IMG/VR virus record: IMGVR_UViG_3300032322_002582
Location: 1-52,801 of that record
Origin: a virus
Length of the DNA: 52,801 nucleotides
Reading direction: 5' to 3' (one strand)
Within the stretch, counting starts at the first letter, position 1. Each line of letters starts with the position of its first letter. The translations under genes were made by a program, and so were the position numbers. This document shows positions 6,440 to 22,114 of the stretch, piece after piece. Below the pieces are notes generated by a model. That model did not search any database. It was given only the letters and a program-made list of their open reading frames with translations, and was not told the origin of the DNA.

Positions 6440-7347
6440 TCACCGGTGGATCGGGGTATCTCGGCAGTTTTCTCTGCAAGCGACTGAAGCAAGAAGGCTG
6501 GAATGTAGTTCTTTATGACATTAAGCCTCCTCTTCATACTTACTGTGACACTATCATTATTGATAACATTTTGAACCGAGAAATGGTTCGAACAGTTTTT
6601 CAAAATAATAAAATTGATGTAGTTTTTCATCTTGCTGGTAGAATTGAAGTCGGTCTTTCTGTTTTAGAGCCTACTAAATTTTGGGAAGTAAATGTAGGTG
6701 GAACTTTAATTGTTCTTGATGCGATGAAAGAGTTTGACTGTGAAACTATCTTTTTCTCTTCAACTGCTGGTGTTTATTTTTGTGGAAGCATTCCCATAGA
6801 TGAAGATGAATGTACCACAGACAATTCTGTCTATTCTAATACTAAACTTTGCTGTGAAAGAGCTATCGAAGACTCTGGCTTAAACTTCGTTATTTTCCGA
6901 TATTTCAACTTAGCAGGTGCAGATGATGAGATGGGTGAAAATCACGATCCCGAAACTCATTTGATTCCATCGATTCTCAGAAATCTAAATAACGTTACAA
7001 TCAATGGTGATGACTATTCAACATCTGATGGAACTTGTGTTCGAGATTACGTTCATGTTTTAGATGTTGTTGATGCACACATTGAAGCTTTGAAGTTGGA
7101 AGAAAAAAACATTCTGGTTAATTTAGGATCAGGTATCGGCTACAGTAACTTGGAAGTTATTCAAACAATTGAAAATGTAATTGGAGAAAAAGTAAACTAC
7201 AAGATTGGACCTAGACGGGAAGGAGATCCTAACTTTCTAGTTGCTGATATTAGTCTCGCTAAGGAATTATTGAATTATGAACCAAAACACAACATCGAAT
7301 CAATCATCAAAACTGCGTATGCTTGGGAGAAAAAAAGAACCTCTTGA
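6418..7347 (+). CDS. galE: NAD-dependent nucleotide-sugar epimerase, UDP-glucose 4-epimerase type
   Basis: 309 residues of the extended short-chain dehydrogenase family. The NAD-binding Rossmann motif is TGGSGYLG (9-16), the SST of the active site is at 114-116, and the catalytic Y-x3-K is Y139-S-N-T-K143. GTCVRDYVHVLDVVDAH and GSGIGYSN are typical of GalE. It is a little shorter than bacterial GalE (about 338). It probably interconverts UDP-glucose/galactose or their N-acetyl forms. The overlapping glycosyltransferase upstream suggests one sugar-modification cassette. Exact substrate not readable. Confidence 0.88.
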   Translation: MESRTALVTGGSGYLGSFLCKRLKQEGWNVVLYDIKPPLHTYCDTIIIDNILNREMVRTVFQNNKIDVVFHLAGRIEVGLSVLEPTKFWEVNVGGTLIVLDAMKEFDCETIFFSSTAGVYFCGSIPIDEDECTTDNSVYSNTKLCCERAIEDSGLNFVIFRYFNLAGADDEMGENHDPETHLIPSILRNLNNVTINGDDYSTSDGTCVRDYVHVLDVVDAHIEALKLEEKNILVNLGSGIGYSNLEVIQTIENVIGEKVNYKIGPRREGDPNFLVADISLAKELLNYEPKHNIESIIKTAYAWEKKRTS

Positions 7348-7900
7348 TGCAATTAGTTTCTCTGTACAAGACAAAATTGAATCTGAGTTTTTAAAACAAA
7401 ACATTCATTTTTTGTTTGGAGAAATTGATGAGTATAACATTACAAGAGCCATACAGTGGATGCTGTATGAGAATAATTTGGAAGAAAAAAATAAAACTCT
7501 ACAACTATTCATCAATTCACCAGGTGGAGATTTGTATCAAGCGTTCGCCCTTATCGATGCCATGAGTTGGAGTAAAGTGCCAATTAGAACGATTGGTTTG
7601 GGAACTGTAATGTCGGCCGCATTTTTAATTTTTGCTTCAGGTGAAAAAGGCGAAAGATTTATTTCAAAGAATTGTGGAATAATGTGTCACCAGTATACAG
7701 ATTTCTTTGAAGGAAAATATCACGACCTGGAGTCATATCGCAAAGAAACGGAATTGTGTATTCAAAGAATGACTAATGTTCTTCAGTCAGCAACAAATTT
7801 GGATGCAAAAGGAGTTAAAACCAAACTTCTTACTCCCAGTGATGTTTGGTTAACAGCAGAAGAGTTGGTAAAACTGGGAGCAGCGGATCATATCATTTAA
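7277..7900 (+). CDS. clpP: ClpP-like serine protease
   Basis: 207 residues, close to bacterial ClpP. The oxyanion-side motif NSPGG is at 80-84. The nucleophile is S113 in GTVMSAAFLIFASG, the histidine H138 in IMCHQY and the aspartate D189 in TPSDVWLTAEEL, so the triad is complete. ClpP forms a barrel that degrades proteins fed by an AAA+ unfoldase such as ClpX. In phages, relatives may act in head maturation or host-protein turnover; here no head gene is nearby. The start at 7277 overlaps galE by 71 bases, with AAGGA 11 bases upstream. An ATG at 7319 would overlap by 29 bases but lacks a ribosome site; either keeps the domain whole. See the tmRNA for a possible link. Confidence 0.9.
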   Translation: MNQNTTSNQSSKLRMLGRKKEPLDAISFSVQDKIESEFLKQNIHFLFGEIDEYNITRAIQWMLYENNLEEKNKTLQLFINSPGGDLYQAFALIDAMSWSKVPIRTIGLGTVMSAAFLIFASGEKGERFISKNCGIMCHQYTDFFEGKYHDLESYRKETELCIQRMTNVLQSATNLDAKGVKTKLLTPSDVWLTAEELVKLGAADHII

Positions 7901-10764: not shown

Positions 10765-11505
10765 ATGTCTAGACGAGCTAATACTAAAATAAGAATATTA
10801 GATGAAGAAGTAAAAACAAATACATTAAAAATAAAGTTAGACGATCTAAAGACATTCCAACCTCTCACACAAAATCAAAAAATATTTTTTGACTCATACA
10901 AACGAGGCGACTATTTCGTAGCACTTCATGGAGTTGCAGGAACGGGAAAAACTTTCTGTGCCATGTATAAGGCACTGGAAGAAGTTTTAGACAAGGGTAA
11001 TCCCTTCAAAAAAATAATTGTTGTACGATCCGCAGTTCAGTCTAGAGAAATCGGTCATTTACCTGGTGATGTTACAGAAAAGATGGAGATTTATCAGCAG
11101 CCATATCAACAAATTTGCGAAACTTTATTTGGACGTAAAGATGCATATCAAAGACTTGCTGAACAAGGCTTCGTGGAATTTATTTCCACATCTTTCATTC
11201 GAGGAATGAGTTTTGATGATGCGATCATTATTGTTGATGAAATGCAGAATTTAACTTTTGAAGAAATTGATACTGTTATGACCCGTGTTGGTTATCGATC
11301 CAAGATTATTTGGTGTGGTGACTATAGACAAACGGATTTGAATAAAAAGAAAAATGATATGAGTGGTATTCTTAAATTTTTCGATATCGCAATGCACATG
11401 GAAGCTTTCACTAAAGTTGAATTTACACCAGATGATATAGTTAGATCATCTCTGGTTAAAGATTATATCTTGGCTAAACTCAGGTATGAAGATTCTGTTG
11501 AATGA
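10765..11505 (+). CDS. phoH: PhoH-family ATPase
   Basis: 246 residues, the typical length of phage PhoH. Walker A is GVAGTGKT (56-63). Walker B is IIIVDEMQN (154-162), followed by the sensor region KIIWCGDYRQTDL. VRSAVQSREIGHLPGD is diagnostic of PhoH. The family is an RNA-helicase-like ATPase; its phage role is not settled, though it is a common marker of aquatic phages. A strong site AAAGGAGAAGG precedes the start. It overlaps the nuclease gene by 4 bases. Confidence 0.95.
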   Translation: MSRRANTKIRILDEEVKTNTLKIKLDDLKTFQPLTQNQKIFFDSYKRGDYFVALHGVAGTGKTFCAMYKALEEVLDKGNPFKKIIVVRSAVQSREIGHLPGDVTEKMEIYQQPYQQICETLFGRKDAYQRLAEQGFVEFISTSFIRGMSFDDAIIIVDEMQNLTFEEIDTVMTRVGYRSKIIWCGDYRQTDLNKKKNDMSGILKFFDIAMHMEAFTKVEFTPDDIVRSSLVKDYILAKLRYEDSVE

Positions 11506-12173
11506 GTTTTATACTTGAAAAAATTTCTGGGTTAGATTTTGATCTTGAGTCTGAAACGACCGAGAGCGGAAGAGTTTATATTACTCCGGAAGGCAATCGA
11601 TATCCATCTATAACAACAGTTTTATCCGCAACAGATTCGAAAGAAGGATTGATTGCATGGAGACAACGTGTTGGAGAAGAGGAAGCCAATAAAATTATGG
11701 GACGCTCCGCACGACGAGGAACAGAACTGCATTTGATATGTGAGAAATATCTTTTGAATGAGATGTCACCGATTAAGTTGAAGATGATGATGCCTCATGT
11801 CAAGGAATTATTCTATAAAATTAAACCATTTATTGATACCTCACTGAATAAAGTATATGCTTTAGAGCAGGTACTTTATTCAAATAAAATGAAAATAGCA
11901 GGTAGAACTGATTGCATTTGTGAGTGGAATGGTGTATTATCTATCTTAGATTTCAAGAACTCGATTAAAATGAAGAGAGAAGAATATATACAAGATTATT
12001 TTTTACAATGTACCGCATACTCTTTGATGTTTGAAGAACTTGTGTCTATTCCAGTGAAACAAATTGTTATATTGGTGGGAGTTGAACAAGGAAATGGACA
12101 AATATTCATTAAGCAAAAAAGCAATTATGTTGAGACTTTGCAAAACAGAATAAATAGTTATATGATCGTTTGA
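11502..12173 (+). CDS. PD-(D/E)XK exonuclease (RecB/MGME1-like)
   Basis: 223 residues. The metal site is E122 in ALEQVLYS, D137 in AGRTDCICEWNG and D150-x-K152 in SILDFKNSIK, followed by a Gln/Tyr motif (YIQDYFLQCTAYSLM), the usual order for Cas4/RecB/MGME1-type nucleases. The N-terminal part holds RYPSITTVLSAT and the helix GRSARRGTELH, both typical of phage members. It probably processes DNA ends in replication or recombination. The 3' end runs up to the acceptor part of the tmRNA and may share bases with it. Confidence 0.85.
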   Translation: MSFILEKISGLDFDLESETTESGRVYITPEGNRYPSITTVLSATDSKEGLIAWRQRVGEEEANKIMGRSARRGTELHLICEKYLLNEMSPIKLKMMMPHVKELFYKIKPFIDTSLNKVYALEQVLYSNKMKIAGRTDCICEWNGVLSILDFKNSIKMKREEYIQDYFLQCTAYSLMFEELVSIPVKQIVILVGVEQGNGQIFIKQKSNYVETLQNRINSYMIV

Positions 12174-12225
12174 AGTTGACTGAAAGGTGTTTCGGACGGC
12201 GGTTCGATTCCGCCCAGGTCCACCA

Positions 12226-12295
12226 GAAGTATATTAGCCCGATAAGACACTCTAACGTCTGAAGTGGGAAAACTGTGTCCTAATATATTTCTGAT
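12226..12295 (+). other. tmRNA intervening segment (predicted to be removed)
   Basis: The 70 bases between the acceptor and coding pieces fold back. Bases 12224-12237 pair with 12280-12293 over 14 positions (one G-U), in line with the acceptor stem, and GACAC/GTGTC (12246-12250, 12275-12279) extends the loop helix. In bacteria with permuted tmRNA the matching segment is cut out to give two RNAs. Confidence 0.75.
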
Positions 12296-12381
12296 GGGCC
12301 TGACCTGGTTTCGACGGGGCAATAAGTAAGAAGATGGACGATTCGACACAGATAGTCGTTAAAAGTAAAAAAAACGTAAAT

Positions 12382-12420
12382 GCAAACGAAAGCGTCTTTG
12401 ACGTAGCATTGGCTGCCTAA
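12382..12420 (+). other. tmRNA proteolysis-tag reading frame
   Basis: Codons GCA AAC GAA AGC GTC TTT GAC GTA GCA TTG GCT GCC TAA give ANESVFDVALAA. The start AN-E and the hydrophobic end ALAA fit known tags read by ClpXP and ClpAP. The resume codon GCA follows an A-rich stretch and CGTAAAT, as is usual. Confidence 0.9.
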
Positions 12421-12486
12421 ACACAGCCTAGGGTTTCGGTGGGTTTCCTCGTAACAGAATAACCCACCATTCAAAGGAGATCATTG

Positions 12487-13017
12487 ATGCATTTTATGAA
12501 ACTTGTTTTCATAGGCATTCTTGGATACTATTTCGCGCAACACTTTCATATACTAGTCGATCAAAAATTTGAAGAGGTTAAAGAGAGTAAGCATCCGCCA
12601 TATGTCACAATGGCTCAACGCGAAAAAGAACTTGACTGTCTAACGAAAAACATATATTATGAAGCAGGAACAGAACCTTTCGAAGGCAAAGTAGCTGTTG
12701 CTCAAGTAACCATCAATAGAACTAAATCAGGTAAATTTCCAAAAGATATTTGTGCAGTTGTATATGAACGAAATTTAGTGTACAATAACCTTATCTGTCA
12801 GTTTAGTTGGTACTGTGATTCAAAAGCGAAAGTGAGGCCCATCCATGCAGCAACCTATAAAGAATCCGAGGCTGTGGCTAAAAAGGTACTTCTCGAAGGA
12901 TTCAAACTTGACATTATCAAAGAGGACACATTATACTATCATGCAGACTACATCAACCCAGGATGGAAAAGACAAAGAGTTGCCAAAATTGGAAAACACA
13001 TCTTCTACAAAGGCTGA
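12487..13017 (+). CDS. SleB-type cell wall hydrolase (endolysin)
   Basis: 176 residues from the ATG at 12487, with AAGGAGA six bases before it; a TTG at 12484 is less likely. Residues 5-20 form a hydrophobic N-terminal segment (LVFIGILGYYFAQ), a signal anchor or signal-arrest type. Residues about 48-176 are the Hydrolase_2/SleB domain, with the catalytic-type NIYYEAGTEPFEGKVAVAQV and CQFSWYCD. The family cleaves peptidoglycan glycan strands. With the membrane gene that follows it probably forms the lysis pair. The anchor suggests Sec export rather than passage through a holin hole. It starts right after the tmRNA and shares its upstream region. Confidence 0.88.
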   Translation: MHFMKLVFIGILGYYFAQHFHILVDQKFEEVKESKHPPYVTMAQREKELDCLTKNIYYEAGTEPFEGKVAVAQVTINRTKSGKFPKDICAVVYERNLVYNNLICQFSWYCDSKAKVRPIHAATYKESEAVAKKVLLEGFKLDIIKEDTLYYHADYINPGWKRQRVAKIGKHIFYKG

Positions 13018-16138: not shown

Positions 16139-17032
16139 ATGTCATTTGCAAATCTTAAACGCAATCGTTCTAGTCTCGATAAACTCACTAAAGCAATCGA
16201 GAGCACCACTCAAACCGTCGAAGCAGGGTCAAAAGACGATACCCGATTCTGGCAACCCTCAGTAGATAAATCTGGAAACGGAATGGCAGTTATTCGTTTT
16301 CTTCCAGCACCGTCTGCTGATGGGGAAGATGGTCTTCCTTGGGTACGAATCTTCAATCACGGCTTTCAGGGACCAGGTGGTTGGTTGATTGACAACTGTT
16401 TGACCACTCTCAATGAAAAGTGCCCTGTGTGTGAACACAATAGCACTCTTTGGAATTCAGGTGTTGAATCAAACAAAGAAATTGTTAGGAAACAAAAGCG
16501 TAAGCTTTCATATGTGGCCAACATTTATGTCGTATCTGATCCTTCAAATCCTGAAAATGAAGGAACTGTTCGATTGTTTAAGTTTGGTAAGAAAATCTTC
16601 GATAAGATTACTGAAGCTATGAATCCAGAATTTGCGGATGAAAAGCCTCTGAATCCGTTCGACTTTTGGGAAGGTGCAAACTTCAAACTCAAGATTCGTA
16701 ACGTCGAAGGTTATCGTAATTACGACAAATCAGAATTTGCAGATCCTTCTGCTCTTTTTGATGGTGATGATGCTAAACTTGAAAAGCTTTACACTCAAGA
16801 ATATTCACTCAAAGAATTTCTTGATCGTAAGAATTTCAAGAGTTATGAGTTGCTTAAAGGTCGTTTGGATAAAGTTCTTGGTTTCGAAAGTGATACCGAG
16901 GATGCTCCTGCTCCCGCGCAAGCCCGTGTGAGTGAAGCCCCAAAATCACTTATTTCAGCTACAACTAAATCACCTGTAACTGCTGAAGATGATGATCTAG
17001 ATTATTTCAAATCTCTAGCAGAAGCAAACTAA
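16139..17032 (+). CDS. gp32: gp32 single-stranded DNA-binding protein
   Basis: 297 residues (T4 301). The basic N terminus (MSFANLKRNRSS) is the cooperativity domain. The zinc site is H74, C87, C95 and C98 (NHGFQGPGG to EKCPVCEH), the same order as T4 H64-C77-C87-C90. The OB-type core follows. The end is the usual acidic tail AEDDDLDYF plus SLAEAN, which recruits partners such as gp59 and the polymerase. gp32 coats single strands in replication and recombination and in T4 represses its own translation. The message is closed by a strong terminator. Confidence 0.97.
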   Translation: MSFANLKRNRSSLDKLTKAIESTTQTVEAGSKDDTRFWQPSVDKSGNGMAVIRFLPAPSADGEDGLPWVRIFNHGFQGPGGWLIDNCLTTLNEKCPVCEHNSTLWNSGVESNKEIVRKQKRKLSYVANIYVVSDPSNPENEGTVRLFKFGKKIFDKITEAMNPEFADEKPLNPFDFWEGANFKLKIRNVEGYRNYDKSEFADPSALFDGDDAKLEKLYTQEYSLKEFLDRKNFKSYELLKGRLDKVLGFESDTEDAPAPAQARVSEAPKSLISATTKSPVTAEDDDLDYFKSLAEAN

Positions 17033-17062: not shown

Positions 17063-19360
17063 CTATCTCGTAGTTCCTGGAAATGATAAATTGAAAAATA
17101 ATTCAACAGCATCCGGATTGCCCACTTGCGGTGTTGATGGTTTTGGTGCTGATGTTTGTTGTACCACTTGAGATTGAGGAACAGGAATAGTGACAACGGT
17201 AGGTTCAGTTTGAACACTAACACTTCTAGTTGCTGTTGATAAATCTGTACTTTGTTTAGTTAACATAAGTCCTGGTATTTTCTGTAAGTTATCTATTCTT
17301 TTTTGCATAGCTTCATCTGATTTATCAGTTGGTCTAGACATTCTAAGACCGAAATATCGTGTTGCTTTTTCCACATCTGTTATTGATTTGAAGATTTCAT
17401 CATCACGAGGACTCTTCTTCATCACCTTTAACATTGCATCAATATTTTTTTCGGGATCCAATAAATCCCGCACACTAAATTCAGGATGAGCTTTTCTATT
17501 GATTTGAAATAGACCGTAGCTCTCTTCTCCTGGAGCACGACTTTTTATTAAAGGATTTAATCCTGATTCTTGTATTGCATTTGCTACAGCCGCTTGAGCT
17601 TGAGCTTCTGAATAACCTGCAAGCAAAAATTTAGATCTTATCAAATCTATCATAGCTTTTGAGCTATGATCAACTCTGGTGGGGCTTAAGCCTCTAGCCG
17701 ATGATGTTGCTTGTGTAGTTGAATCTGTTGTTAATCCTCTTTTTCTTAAAGATTCTTCTATGATTGCATTATAGTTTTCATTTCCAGGTAGAGCAAAATT
17801 TTTGCCTGTCATTCTCATCGATTCTATTTTTTCGAATCTTGCATTTCTTTCTATCATCAATTCTTCTAATTTTGCTGTGGCTTGAACAATGTCTTTATCT
17901 GCCGCTTCGCTAACTATTTTAGGAATAGCACCTCTTCTTCCATATTTCTTTATTTCTTCATTTGCACCTTCTATTTTCGATCTCTGTTCTGCAATATCTT
18001 TGTCTATATCTTCTTCCGTTCTCGTTTGAGTAATTTTTCCCATAATATAACCAGCAGCAGCACCCGCCAATCCTCCTAATGCGGCACCTTTTATTCCGAA
18101 CAAACTTCCGACACTTGCTCCTATAGAAGCACCTAATGTCAACAACAATTCTGGTTTATATTGGTTTATAAATTCTTTAAAATGAAAAGAAAATATTTCA
18201 CCCAATTTACCAAAATTAGTAGCTAAAATTTTGAAAGCCGATTCTGTATATGCTAAAGTAAATTCTGTTCCCCTCTTAATTGTGTCTTTTAGATAATTAA
18301 AATCGTCACCAAATTTTTGATCAATCCAGTCATATATGTCTGTAAATTTTTTTGTATTAAATATATTGTTTAAATTTTCTGCTAGTTGTCTCAGAATAGG
18401 TTCTCCACTTTCTAAATTTATACCTAAAACTCCAGCAATACCTTTTTTGACGGACTCATAAATTCCTTTGAAGTCGATGTCTTCGCTCATTTTTTTAATT
18501 GCGTATGCGGAAGCAGCTATTCCCACTATTCCCAAAAGTGGAGATATTGCTATTATGCTACCTAATGTTCTAAAAATAACAGATCCTACTGATCCTCCAA
18601 TTCCAGACATTCCGGCTATGATACCACCCAAAAAAGATGATGAGCTAGATTGTTTTTGTGGAGAAGTTGATTGAGATGGTGTGTCTCTTTTTGTAATAAT
18701 ACTTCTCGCGATGACACTTTCATTCGCTGTATTTCTAACGTTTCTTTTTGTCGAATCTGTTTTTGTTGTTTCTCTTCTATCAGCCATTCTCTTAAATAGA
18801 GAAGATATATTTGACAAGATGGAGTTTTGTCTTTTCACCATCAAGTTCATATTGAATGCACTTGTTTTAGGATCATCTAATTGTTTTACTGGCGTTTTTT
18901 CTTTCGAATACATTTGATTAAATGTATCATTTCTTTGTGAGGAATTTATCCAAAGAGCATCTGCTGCTTTCGCCGACTTGCCGGTAACTTTTTTTGTTAA
19001 TGATGTTATGTTTTGGCGAGTTATATTCATATCTCGCGCCATCATGTTCATATTCAAAGTATTCTTGGCTACGACTTTTAATAAAGCCTCTTGTCTCTCA
19101 TTAGATTGTTGTAATGAAGTTAATTCTACCGATGGCGTATCAGATAGTCCTGAAACTTTAGCGCCAGTTTTTTTTATCGGTGAATATCCTTTTCCAAAAA
19201 TTTTCTGACCAGTCGAACGAATGAATCCTTGTCCACTAAAAAGTAGATTTCTTATATCCATTCGTTCAACAAGTCCTTTTCCAGCTGCCGCTCCCAAAGC
19301 GGCTAAAGCGCCCTTGTTTTTTAGTTCTTGGCGATATATGGTAGAAAATTTAGTTGCCAT
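17063..19360 (-). CDS. Tail tape measure protein with C-terminal tail lysozyme domain
   Basis: 765 residues. Residues 1-220 are basic and helical. Two Gly/Ala hydrophobic blocks follow (about 245-310: SFLGGIIAGMSGIGGSVGSV; about 405-445: LLTLGASIGASVGSLFG and on), typical of tape measures that insert into the host membrane. Long helices follow to about 540. About 575-690 is a soluble lytic/lysozyme fold: AQAAVANAIQESGLNPLIKS with the likely catalytic Glu in QESG, then GEESYGLFQINRKAH. The position after a gp26/gp51-type pair matches T4 gp29 (590), though T4 has its lysozyme in gp5. It is the last gene of the leftward unit, with its ATG on the stop of the gene before. Confidence 0.88.
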   Translation of the reverse strand: MATKFSTIYRQELKNKGALAALGAAAGKGLVERMDIRNLLFSGQGFIRSTGQKIFGKGYSPIKKTGAKVSGLSDTPSVELTSLQQSNERQEALLKVVAKNTLNMNMMARDMNITRQNITSLTKKVTGKSAKAADALWINSSQRNDTFNQMYSKEKTPVKQLDDPKTSAFNMNLMVKRQNSILSNISSLFKRMADRRETTKTDSTKRNVRNTANESVIARSIITKRDTPSQSTSPQKQSSSSSFLGGIIAGMSGIGGSVGSVIFRTLGSIIAISPLLGIVGIAASAYAIKKMSEDIDFKGIYESVKKGIAGVLGINLESGEPILRQLAENLNNIFNTKKFTDIYDWIDQKFGDDFNYLKDTIKRGTEFTLAYTESAFKILATNFGKLGEIFSFHFKEFINQYKPELLLTLGASIGASVGSLFGIKGAALGGLAGAAAGYIMGKITQTRTEEDIDKDIAEQRSKIEGANEEIKKYGRRGAIPKIVSEAADKDIVQATAKLEELMIERNARFEKIESMRMTGKNFALPGNENYNAIIEESLRKRGLTTDSTTQATSSARGLSPTRVDHSSKAMIDLIRSKFLLAGYSEAQAQAAVANAIQESGLNPLIKSRAPGEESYGLFQINRKAHPEFSVRDLLDPEKNIDAMLKVMKKSPRDDEIFKSITDVEKATRYFGLRMSRPTDKSDEAMQKRIDNLQKIPGLMLTKQSTDLSTATRSVSVQTEPTVVTIPVPQSQVVQQTSAPKPSTPQVGNPDAVELFFNLSFPGTTR

Positions 19361-21664: not shown

Positions 21665-22114
21665 TTAGAATATACCCAGATCTTTTTCGGTAAGAATCTT
21701 AAATTGCCATCCATGTTCATGACAAAATTCATCCGCGGCTTTCCATTTCATTTGATTTATAGCATAAGTTGCCGCTTCCTGAATGAATTTTTTAGTTTTT
21801 CTTTTTTGCGTTGGTTTTTTAGTTTGAGCTTCTGGTTTTACCTCAATAACATATGTCATAACTGTTCCGTCTTTCCTTTGTACTTTAATGATAAAGTCGG
21901 GAAAGTATCTGTGTCTTTTCCCGTCAACTGGAGAGATGTAAGGAATGGCTAACTCTTCAGATGACCACCAGATGATGTTTGGATGATCATCAAAATATTT
22001 CATACAACGAAGTTCCCAGGAGGATCGATAAATGATGTTTTCTGGGTTTCCCTTGTATTTTTGTGGGTTTTGTGGCTTAAACCAGCCTTTGTAGGTGTTT
22101 TTTCCGTATGACAT
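21665..22114 (-). CDS. gp4: gp4 head completion protein
   Basis: 149 residues (T4 gp4 150). T4-like blocks: FKPQNPQKYKGNPENIIYRS, WELRCMKYFDDHP, EELAIPYISPVDGKRHRYFP, DFIIKVQ, VIEVKPEAQTKKP and the WKAADEFCHEHGWQFKILTE end. The D-x(n)-E-x-K arrangement (PDFIIK, IEVKP) is that of a PD-(D/E)XK nuclease fold. In T4 gp4 completes the filled head before tail joining. It is first in the leftward unit, 30 bases from divergent gp48. Confidence 0.92.
   Translation of the reverse strand: MSYGKNTYKGWFKPQNPQKYKGNPENIIYRSSWELRCMKYFDDHPNIIWWSSEELAIPYISPVDGKRHRYFPDFIIKVQRKDGTVMTYVIEVKPEAQTKKPTQKRKTKKFIQEAATYAINQMKWKAADEFCHEHGWQFKILTEKDLGIF

What the first reader, a model, noticed from the sequence alone, without database searches (positions are those of the whole stretch)
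12174..12468. Phage genome encodes a circularly permuted, two-piece tmRNA
The acceptor half with T arm and encoded CCA comes first, then a 70-base spacer, then the D-loop/coding half. The two halves rebuild a complete 7-bp acceptor stem, and a tag frame ANESVFDVALAA lies where it should. Known: permuted tmRNA occurs in Alphaproteobacteria, Cyanobacteria and some Betaproteobacteria, and one-piece tmRNA is known in some phages. I am not aware of a T4-like phage with the permuted form, but cannot search. It may have come from a host and so could mark the host lineage.
Basis: partly seen in the sequence, partly recalled or inferred. Interest (0 to 1): 0.85.

Follow-up and report, generated by a model that had tools for sequence, protein, structure and literature searches.

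The report
Two-piece ribosome-rescue RNA in a phage
This bacterial virus really does carry a gene for a split "rescue RNA" that frees stuck ribosomes; such genes were already reported in related viruses, but here it sits at a conserved spot beside the cell-bursting gene, behind what looks like a late-infection start signal.

Summary
Rfam RF04321 (135.7 bits, E 1.6e-26) and ARAGORN both call a permuted tmRNA with tag ANESVFDVALAA; acceptor stem, G3-U70 and 70-base spacer are as described. It is not new in kind: the T4-like phage Melnitz has a published two-piece tmRNA, and the same paper counts 53 two-piece forms in public phage genomes (PMC9004378, passages). What I add: (1) a recurrent place, PhoH-exonuclease-[tmRNA]-endolysin-DsbA-gp59-gp32; 64 of 117 loci show flanking markers, and Melnitz matches. 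(2) A T4-type late-promoter octamer ends 7 bases before the model's first base and recurs at that spacing in 15 of 101 viral loci (control 1.1%). (3) The phage also encodes a ClpP-like protease; 12 of 139 tmRNA-bearing loci have one near the tmRNA. (4) Nearest kin are viral, so it marks no host. Best reading: a late-expressed phage tmRNA that uses host SmpB to rescue ribosomes. Whether tagging feeds the phage ClpP is open.

The parts
12149..12156 (+). AATAAATA, T4-type late-promoter octamer (NATAAATA); predicted start of transcription about 12162
   Evidence: Fixed spacing to the CCA end in 15 of 101 distinct viral loci at 7/8 or better, control 1.1%; start-site rule recalled from T4
12164..12225 (+). 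acceptor piece of the tmRNA: inter-piece helix strand, T arm, acceptor 3' strand, encoded CCA
   Evidence: RF04321 alignment; pair counts
12226..12295 (+). 70-base intervening segment, folds as a long hairpin that joins the two pieces
   Evidence: -19.0 kcal/mol, z -3.55, 0 of 200 shuffles as good
12296..12468 (+). coding piece: acceptor 5' strand, D-loop TGGTTTCGAC, inter-piece helix strand, tag frame, 3' hairpin
12382..12420 (+). tag frame GCA...TAA, ANESVFDVALAA
   Evidence: ARAGORN
12438..12468 (+). 3' terminal hairpin GGTGGGTT...AACCCACC
   Evidence: fold of 12421-12475, z -2.46, 3 of 200 shuffles as good
12487..13017 (+). endolysin, cell wall hydrolase; Shine-Dalgarno-like AGGAG at 12475-12479
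   Evidence: PF07486 82.3 bits (cut-off 27), phrog_938
11502..12173 (+). exonuclease (PD-(D/E)XK type in Melnitz annotation)
   Evidence: phrog_298 230 bits; Melnitz counterpart
10765..11505 (+). PhoH-like ATPase
   Evidence: PF02562 154.2 bits
14508..14780 (+). DsbA, late-transcription regulator
   Evidence: PF11126 55.5 bits
15000..15581 (+). gp59 helicase loader
   Evidence: PF08993, phrog_269
16139..17032 (+). gp32 single-strand DNA binding protein
   Evidence: PF08804 159.6 bits
7277..7900 (+). ClpP-like serine protease, catalytic Ser and His positions kept
   Evidence: PF00574 112.8 bits (cut-off 20.2); solved ClpP chains matched

Best explanation
A functional, permuted ssrA gene of a T4-like phage. 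Shown here: its structure, conservation by compensatory changes, its recurrent place between exonuclease and endolysin, and a late-promoter-like octamer at a fixed distance. Inferred: late in infection the phage-modified host RNA polymerase starts near 12162; host tRNA-processing enzymes cut at 12225 and 12296; host AlaRS charges the acceptor piece through G3-U70; host SmpB brings the two-piece RNA to ribosomes stalled on broken mRNA; the tag ANESVFDVALAA marks the unfinished chain for degradation. The likely benefit is to keep ribosomes cycling while mRNA is being degraded, until the adjacent endolysin ends the infection.
For:: ARAGORN and Rfam; the helix between the two pieces (12164-12168 with 12339-12343) is paired in 118/123, 121/123, 118/123, 112/118 and 111/123 viral rows, with two or more standard pair types at each of the five pairs; T arm 123/123 at all five pairs; all 7 acceptor pairs in 117 of 118 (pattern-found loci plus window), G3-U70 118 of 118, pairs 4 and 5 swapped by double changes; tags end in AA in 110 of 117 and in ALAA in 82 of 117; markers of the same locus in 64 of 117 RNA-found loci (both sides 34); of 20 endolysin-found loci with DsbA/gp59 downstream and over 2 kb upstream, 13 have the tmRNA; same order in Melnitz; octamer at fixed spacing; in the window four more octamers lie about 5-30 bases before tail, baseplate or head/fibre-like genes (22145, 28062, 33566, 49417); no SmpB in the window or in 9 cultured phage genomes with a permuted tmRNA, so host SmpB is needed.
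Against: No transcript or processing data. 86 of 101 loci lack an octamer of 7/8 or better, and among 9 cultured phages only Melnitz has one. The Melnitz authors assign its tmRNA to an early sigma-70 promoter (PMC9004378, passages). tmRNA distances follow those of endolysin (Mantel r 0.31) and exonuclease (0.25), 0 of 999 permutations each, but hardly those of gp59 (0.09) or gp32 (0.11), 69 of 999 each, so exchange at the locus is likely. 53 of 117 loci show no marker; many are cut short. 7 of 20 endolysin-found loci lack an ARAGORN call. The window is a 52.8 kb fragment, so an SmpB elsewhere in the genome is not excluded.
Confidence: 0.68

Rival explanations
1. Decoy: the phage RNA binds SmpB or ribosomes and blocks the host's own trans-translation, as proposed for the short tRNA-like RNA of mycobacteriophage DS6A.
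For: Phage tmRNA without phage SmpB; DS6A precedent in PMC4131195 and PMC11915505 (passages).
Against: A full tag frame is kept with resume codon, stop and AA end in 110 of 117; in a long-tag family codon changes are mostly at third positions (293 of 417) and synonymous (211 against 125). A decoy needs no tag.
Confidence: 0.1
2. Only a structured leader of the endolysin mRNA that delays lysis, no longer processed.
For: The endolysin start lies 18 bases after the 3' hairpin.
Against: Helix between pieces, T arm, acceptor and G3-U70 are kept by compensatory change, which a leader does not need; in other loci 1-4 kb separate the tmRNA from the endolysin.
Confidence: 0.07
3. A recently captured host gene, passively carried.
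For: Melnitz authors infer capture from an alphaproteobacterial source (PMC9004378, passages); phylogenetic tests here are not decisive.
Against: Recurrent locus, nearest kin viral, no bacterial match to the acceptor pattern.
Confidence: 0.06
4. A specific tagging-and-proteolysis module: phage tmRNA tags proteins and a phage ClpP-like peptidase, with host ClpX or ClpA, degrades them.
For: ClpP-like gene on the tmRNA strand in 12 of 139 tmRNA-bearing loci and in 0 of 60 without (Fisher p 0.02, rows not independent); directly next to the tmRNA in L016 and L070, after the endolysin in L014 and L176; Ser and His positions conserved.
Against: Only 1 of 9 cultured phages with permuted tmRNA has a CLP_protease gene, far from it; phage ClpP relatives also serve as prohead proteases (PHROGs label; PMC5964084, passage).
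Confidence: 0.15

Closest known systems
Methylophilales phage Melnitz two-piece ssrA (MZ577097; PMC9004378)
   Same: T4-like phage, permuted tmRNA, same neighbours PhoH, PD-(D/E)XK nuclease, late coactivator, gp59, gp32; octamer TATAAATA at -77 from the CCA end
   Different: Alpha-type by Rfam (106.7 bits), glutamine riboswitch after it (52.8 bits); the authors report an early promoter; no endolysin directly downstream in the annotation
Pelagibacter phages HTVC008M and Mosig
   Same: T4-like, RF04321 over cut-off (90.6 and 93.6 bits)
   Different: Alpha-type
Bacterial beta-type two-piece tmRNA (Cupriavidus, Rhodocyclaceae), RF01850
   Same: Best Rfam subtype for the window (110.4 bits); bacterial tags ANDERFALAA, ANDEKFALAA resemble the viral ones
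   Different: Spacer 24-42 against 54-87 in the pattern-found viral set; both ranges were bounded by the gaps in my search patterns (endolysin-found viral loci 53-119); octamer in 0 of 20
Xanthomonas and Stenotrophomonas phages XacN1, X1, Rb1, DLP_6, QDWS359, BUCTxx99
   Same: RF04321 over cut-off in all six
   Different: Other genome contexts; no tmRNA listed at the match in the record tables I viewed

Membership tests
Permuted tmRNA (RF04321) | Acceptor/T-arm half precedes D-loop/coding half, model score over cut-off | tested here: met
   135.7 bits against 47
Permuted tmRNA (RF04321) | 7-bp acceptor stem across the two pieces with G3-U70 | tested here: met
   window GGGCCTG/CAGGTCC
Permuted tmRNA (RF04321) | Tag frame with Ala resume codon and stop | tested here: met
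   ANESVFDVALAA, 12382-12420
Permuted tmRNA (RF04321) | Helix joining the two pieces, supported by covariation | tested here: met
Permuted tmRNA (RF04321) | Transcript cut into two pieces | not testable with these tools
   needs RNA ends
Beta-type subfamily (RF01850) | Best score among the three permuted subtypes and over cut-off | tested here: met
   110.4 (cut-off 84); alpha 64.7 (50); cyano 57.5 (70, not met)
Trans-translation system | SmpB partner in the same genome | tested here: not met
   0 of 10 phage records incl. the window fragment; the partner would have to be the host's
T4-like myovirus | gp32, gp59, DsbA, gp6, gp53 homologues | tested here: met
ClpP peptidase (window 7277-7900) | CLP_protease domain with catalytic Ser and His | tested here: met
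   PF00574 112.8 bits; alignments
T4 late promoter (NATAAATA) | Octamer upstream of late genes | tested here: inconclusive
   Exact octamer and fixed spacing; activity not measured

The most novel reading that the evidence does not exclude
A core late locus of a large group of T4-like phages carries its own tagging-and-proteolysis module: late-promoter tmRNA, endolysin and, in some, a ClpP-like peptidase, run on host SmpB and ClpX. The phage lineage would also be the reservoir from which the patchy beta-type two-piece tmRNAs of Cupriavidus and Rhodocyclaceae came.
Probability: 0.2. Interest if true: 0.82.

Novelty: new member of a known kind. Interest (0 to 1): 0.48.

Why it matters
Phage tmRNAs are known but unexplained. 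A recurrent place next to the lysis gene, a late-promoter octamer at fixed spacing and, in part, a neighbouring ClpP turn "why does a phage carry ssrA" into a testable question about late infection. It also gives a reason to doubt the use of phage ssrA as a record of recent host switching.

Tried and rejected
Host marking by tmRNA kinship: rejected.

Phage-to-bacterium transfer of the beta type: the alpha-rooted tree puts 5 beta bacterial rows inside a node with 14 viral rows (support 100/100), but AU tests do not reject one bacterial clade (p 0.21), one clade of beta-type viruses (p 0.15) or one clade of all viruses (p 0.19). An earlier quick tree looked clearer, but its own tests showed that the search had missed better trees, so I do not use it for this. 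Five long-branch rows, one odd bacterial row (L253) and near-duplicates were dropped. Searches dropped rows by motif or length; one search dropped 15 of 213.

Co-inheritance with gp59 and gp32: weak. Fold of the acceptor piece alone and of the first 125 bases of the coding piece: no better than shuffles, as expected if the pieces pair with each other. ClpP link in cultured phages: 1 of 9. Seven cyanophages as controls: 0 of 7 with permuted tmRNA, 0 of 7 with ClpP. Sigma-70 scan: 39 sites against 28.9 in shuffles, not used. Integrase or phage genes around the Cupriavidus copies: no family search was run; only frames were listed and shared flanks compared.

Full report
Observation. ARAGORN reports one permuted tmRNA in the window with tag ANESVFDVALAA. 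Rfam gives RF04321 tmRNA_permuted 135.7 bits at 12164-12420 and RF01850 beta_tmRNA 110.4 bits at 12113-12483; the alpha model scores 64.7, the cyano model 57.5 and below its cut-off. The acceptor stem pairs over all 7 positions with G3-U70, and the spacer is 70 bases. The spacer folds as a hairpin far better than shuffles (z -3.55). The gene fits between the exonuclease stop (12173) and the endolysin start (12487); its first bases overlap the exonuclease end.

What kind of genome. gp6, gp53, gp32, gp59 and DsbA homologues show a T4-like myovirus. By gp6 the best cultured match is Methylophilales phage Melnitz at 39% identity. The record is a virus contig of 52.8 kb, short of the 141-147 kb of its cultured T4-like relatives, so probably a fragment; the host is not known.

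Known or new. A search for 'permuted tmRNA' with 'phage' returned two papers and one for 'two-piece tmRNA' with 'phage' 14. PMC9004378 (abstract and passages read) describes a two-piece tmRNA in Melnitz and 53 two-piece forms among 133 unique tmRNA structures, carried by 402 of 18,146 phage genomes. PMC11915505 (passages) lists 79 unique phage tmRNAs of all forms. So the basic finding is known. Searches for tmRNA with late promoter, with ClpP and T4-like, and with virome showed, in their listings and the passages I read, no report of the late octamer or of the ClpP neighbour; that is limited to this open-access library.

How widespread. Of 40 loci classed by Rfam, 40 reach RF04321; the best subtype is beta in 31, alpha in 3 (Melnitz, HTVC008M, Mosig), none in 6. 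All 8 cultured phages that I chose by similarity have it, as does Melnitz; 0 of 7 cyanophages do. The Xanthomonas and Stenotrophomonas hosts of six of them are, from recall, one-piece tmRNA bacteria; this was not tested.

A recurrent place. Melnitz has PhoH, PD-(D/E)XK nuclease, tmRNA, late coactivator, gp59, gp32 in this order, as the window has PhoH, exonuclease, tmRNA, endolysin, AAA ATPase, DsbA, gp59, gp32. Among the 117 RNA-found loci 34 have markers on both sides, 5 upstream only, 25 downstream only and 53 none, many being cut short; L006 has the block reversed, and L021 and L105 a DsbA hit upstream. Loci found by the endolysin alone: of 20 with DsbA or gp59 downstream and over 2 kb upstream, 13 carry the tmRNA. 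Distances between tmRNAs follow those of endolysin and exonuclease, but not clearly gp59 and gp32: long residence with exchange.

Late promoter. The octamer AATAAATA (12149-12156) ends 7 bases before the model's first base. At this spacing 15 of 101 distinct viral loci match TATAAATA at 7/8 or better against 1.1% in controls, 40 of 101 at 6/8 or better against 8.9%, and 0 of 20 beta bacterial rows at either level. Melnitz has the exact octamer at the same spacing. In the window the + strand has nine NATAAATA sites and the - strand two; four of the + sites end about 5-30 bases before tail, baseplate or head/fibre-like genes. The Melnitz authors place its tmRNA after an early promoter predicted by BPROM; the two can coexist. 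That T4 late transcription starts 6 bases after the octamer is recalled.

Function. Acceptor stem, T arm and the helix between pieces are kept by compensatory change, and tags keep an AA end in 110 of 117. No SmpB was found in the window or 9 cultured phages. The simplest mechanism is ribosome rescue with host SmpB. The window also encodes a ClpP-like protease (ClpP chains). A profile search found such genes on the tmRNA strand in 12 of 139 tmRNA-bearing loci, counting the window (4.7 kb away), and 0 of 60 others (Fisher p 0.02; loci related and lengths unequal). In L016 and L070 it directly follows the tmRNA; in L014 and L176 it follows the endolysin. Cultured phages do not support the link: 1 of 9, distant.

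Origin. In the class sample 5 of 369 genomes pass RF04321, only 2 clearly, one being the centre itself; the other three score 47.8-49.3 bits and ARAGORN calls them one-piece. In the phylum sample 89 of 249 pass. A beta-type pattern found 20 bacterial stretches: Cupriavidus, Rhodocyclaceae and a few MAGs. Cupriavidus pinatubonensis has one standard and five permuted genes; five genomes of Rhodocyclaceae, related genera or MAGs (G002-G006) have only the permuted form over the cut-off. The careful tree nests the beta bacterial rows among viral ones, but tests do not exclude the alternatives. A phage origin of the bacterial beta type is thus a lead, not a result.

Verdict.

Noticed in passing
L019, L024-L026, L028, L032, L046, L061, L069, L100, L104 and others: 25 of 117 pattern-found viral permuted tmRNAs are called with unusually long tags (23-31 aa; L039 probably a miscall), e.g. 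ANADTFDFSAMSFTGNTVSGKSKVALAA. In 13 SFTGN-type sequences codon differences are mostly synonymous (211 against 125) and at third positions (293 of 417), so the middle of the tag looks selected as protein.
   Followed up: partly
L214:2840-3253 (XacN1, AP018399): A GOLLD RNA (RF02032, 227.3 bits) lies about 1 kb after the permuted tmRNA in a stretch without annotated genes; the record has two tmRNA copies, at 37 kb and 356 kb.
   Followed up: no
G001 (Cupriavidus pinatubonensis), L231, L234, L238, L247-L251: One standard and five permuted tmRNA genes in one genome, on more than one replicon; copies of the ANDEKFALAA type share roughly 0.4-1.1 kb of similar sequence in different surroundings, as a dispersed repeat would.
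   Followed up: partly
window 7277-7900: ClpP-like protease gene of the phage, PF00574 112.8 bits.
   Followed up: partly
window 21665-22114 (-): TnsA-like endonuclease N-terminal domain (PF08722, 86.3 bits) among tail genes.
   Followed up: no
window 17059-17038 (-): Strong terminator-like hairpin read on the - strand, just after the + strand gp32 gene and near the end of the convergent - strand ORF 17063-19360.
   Followed up: no
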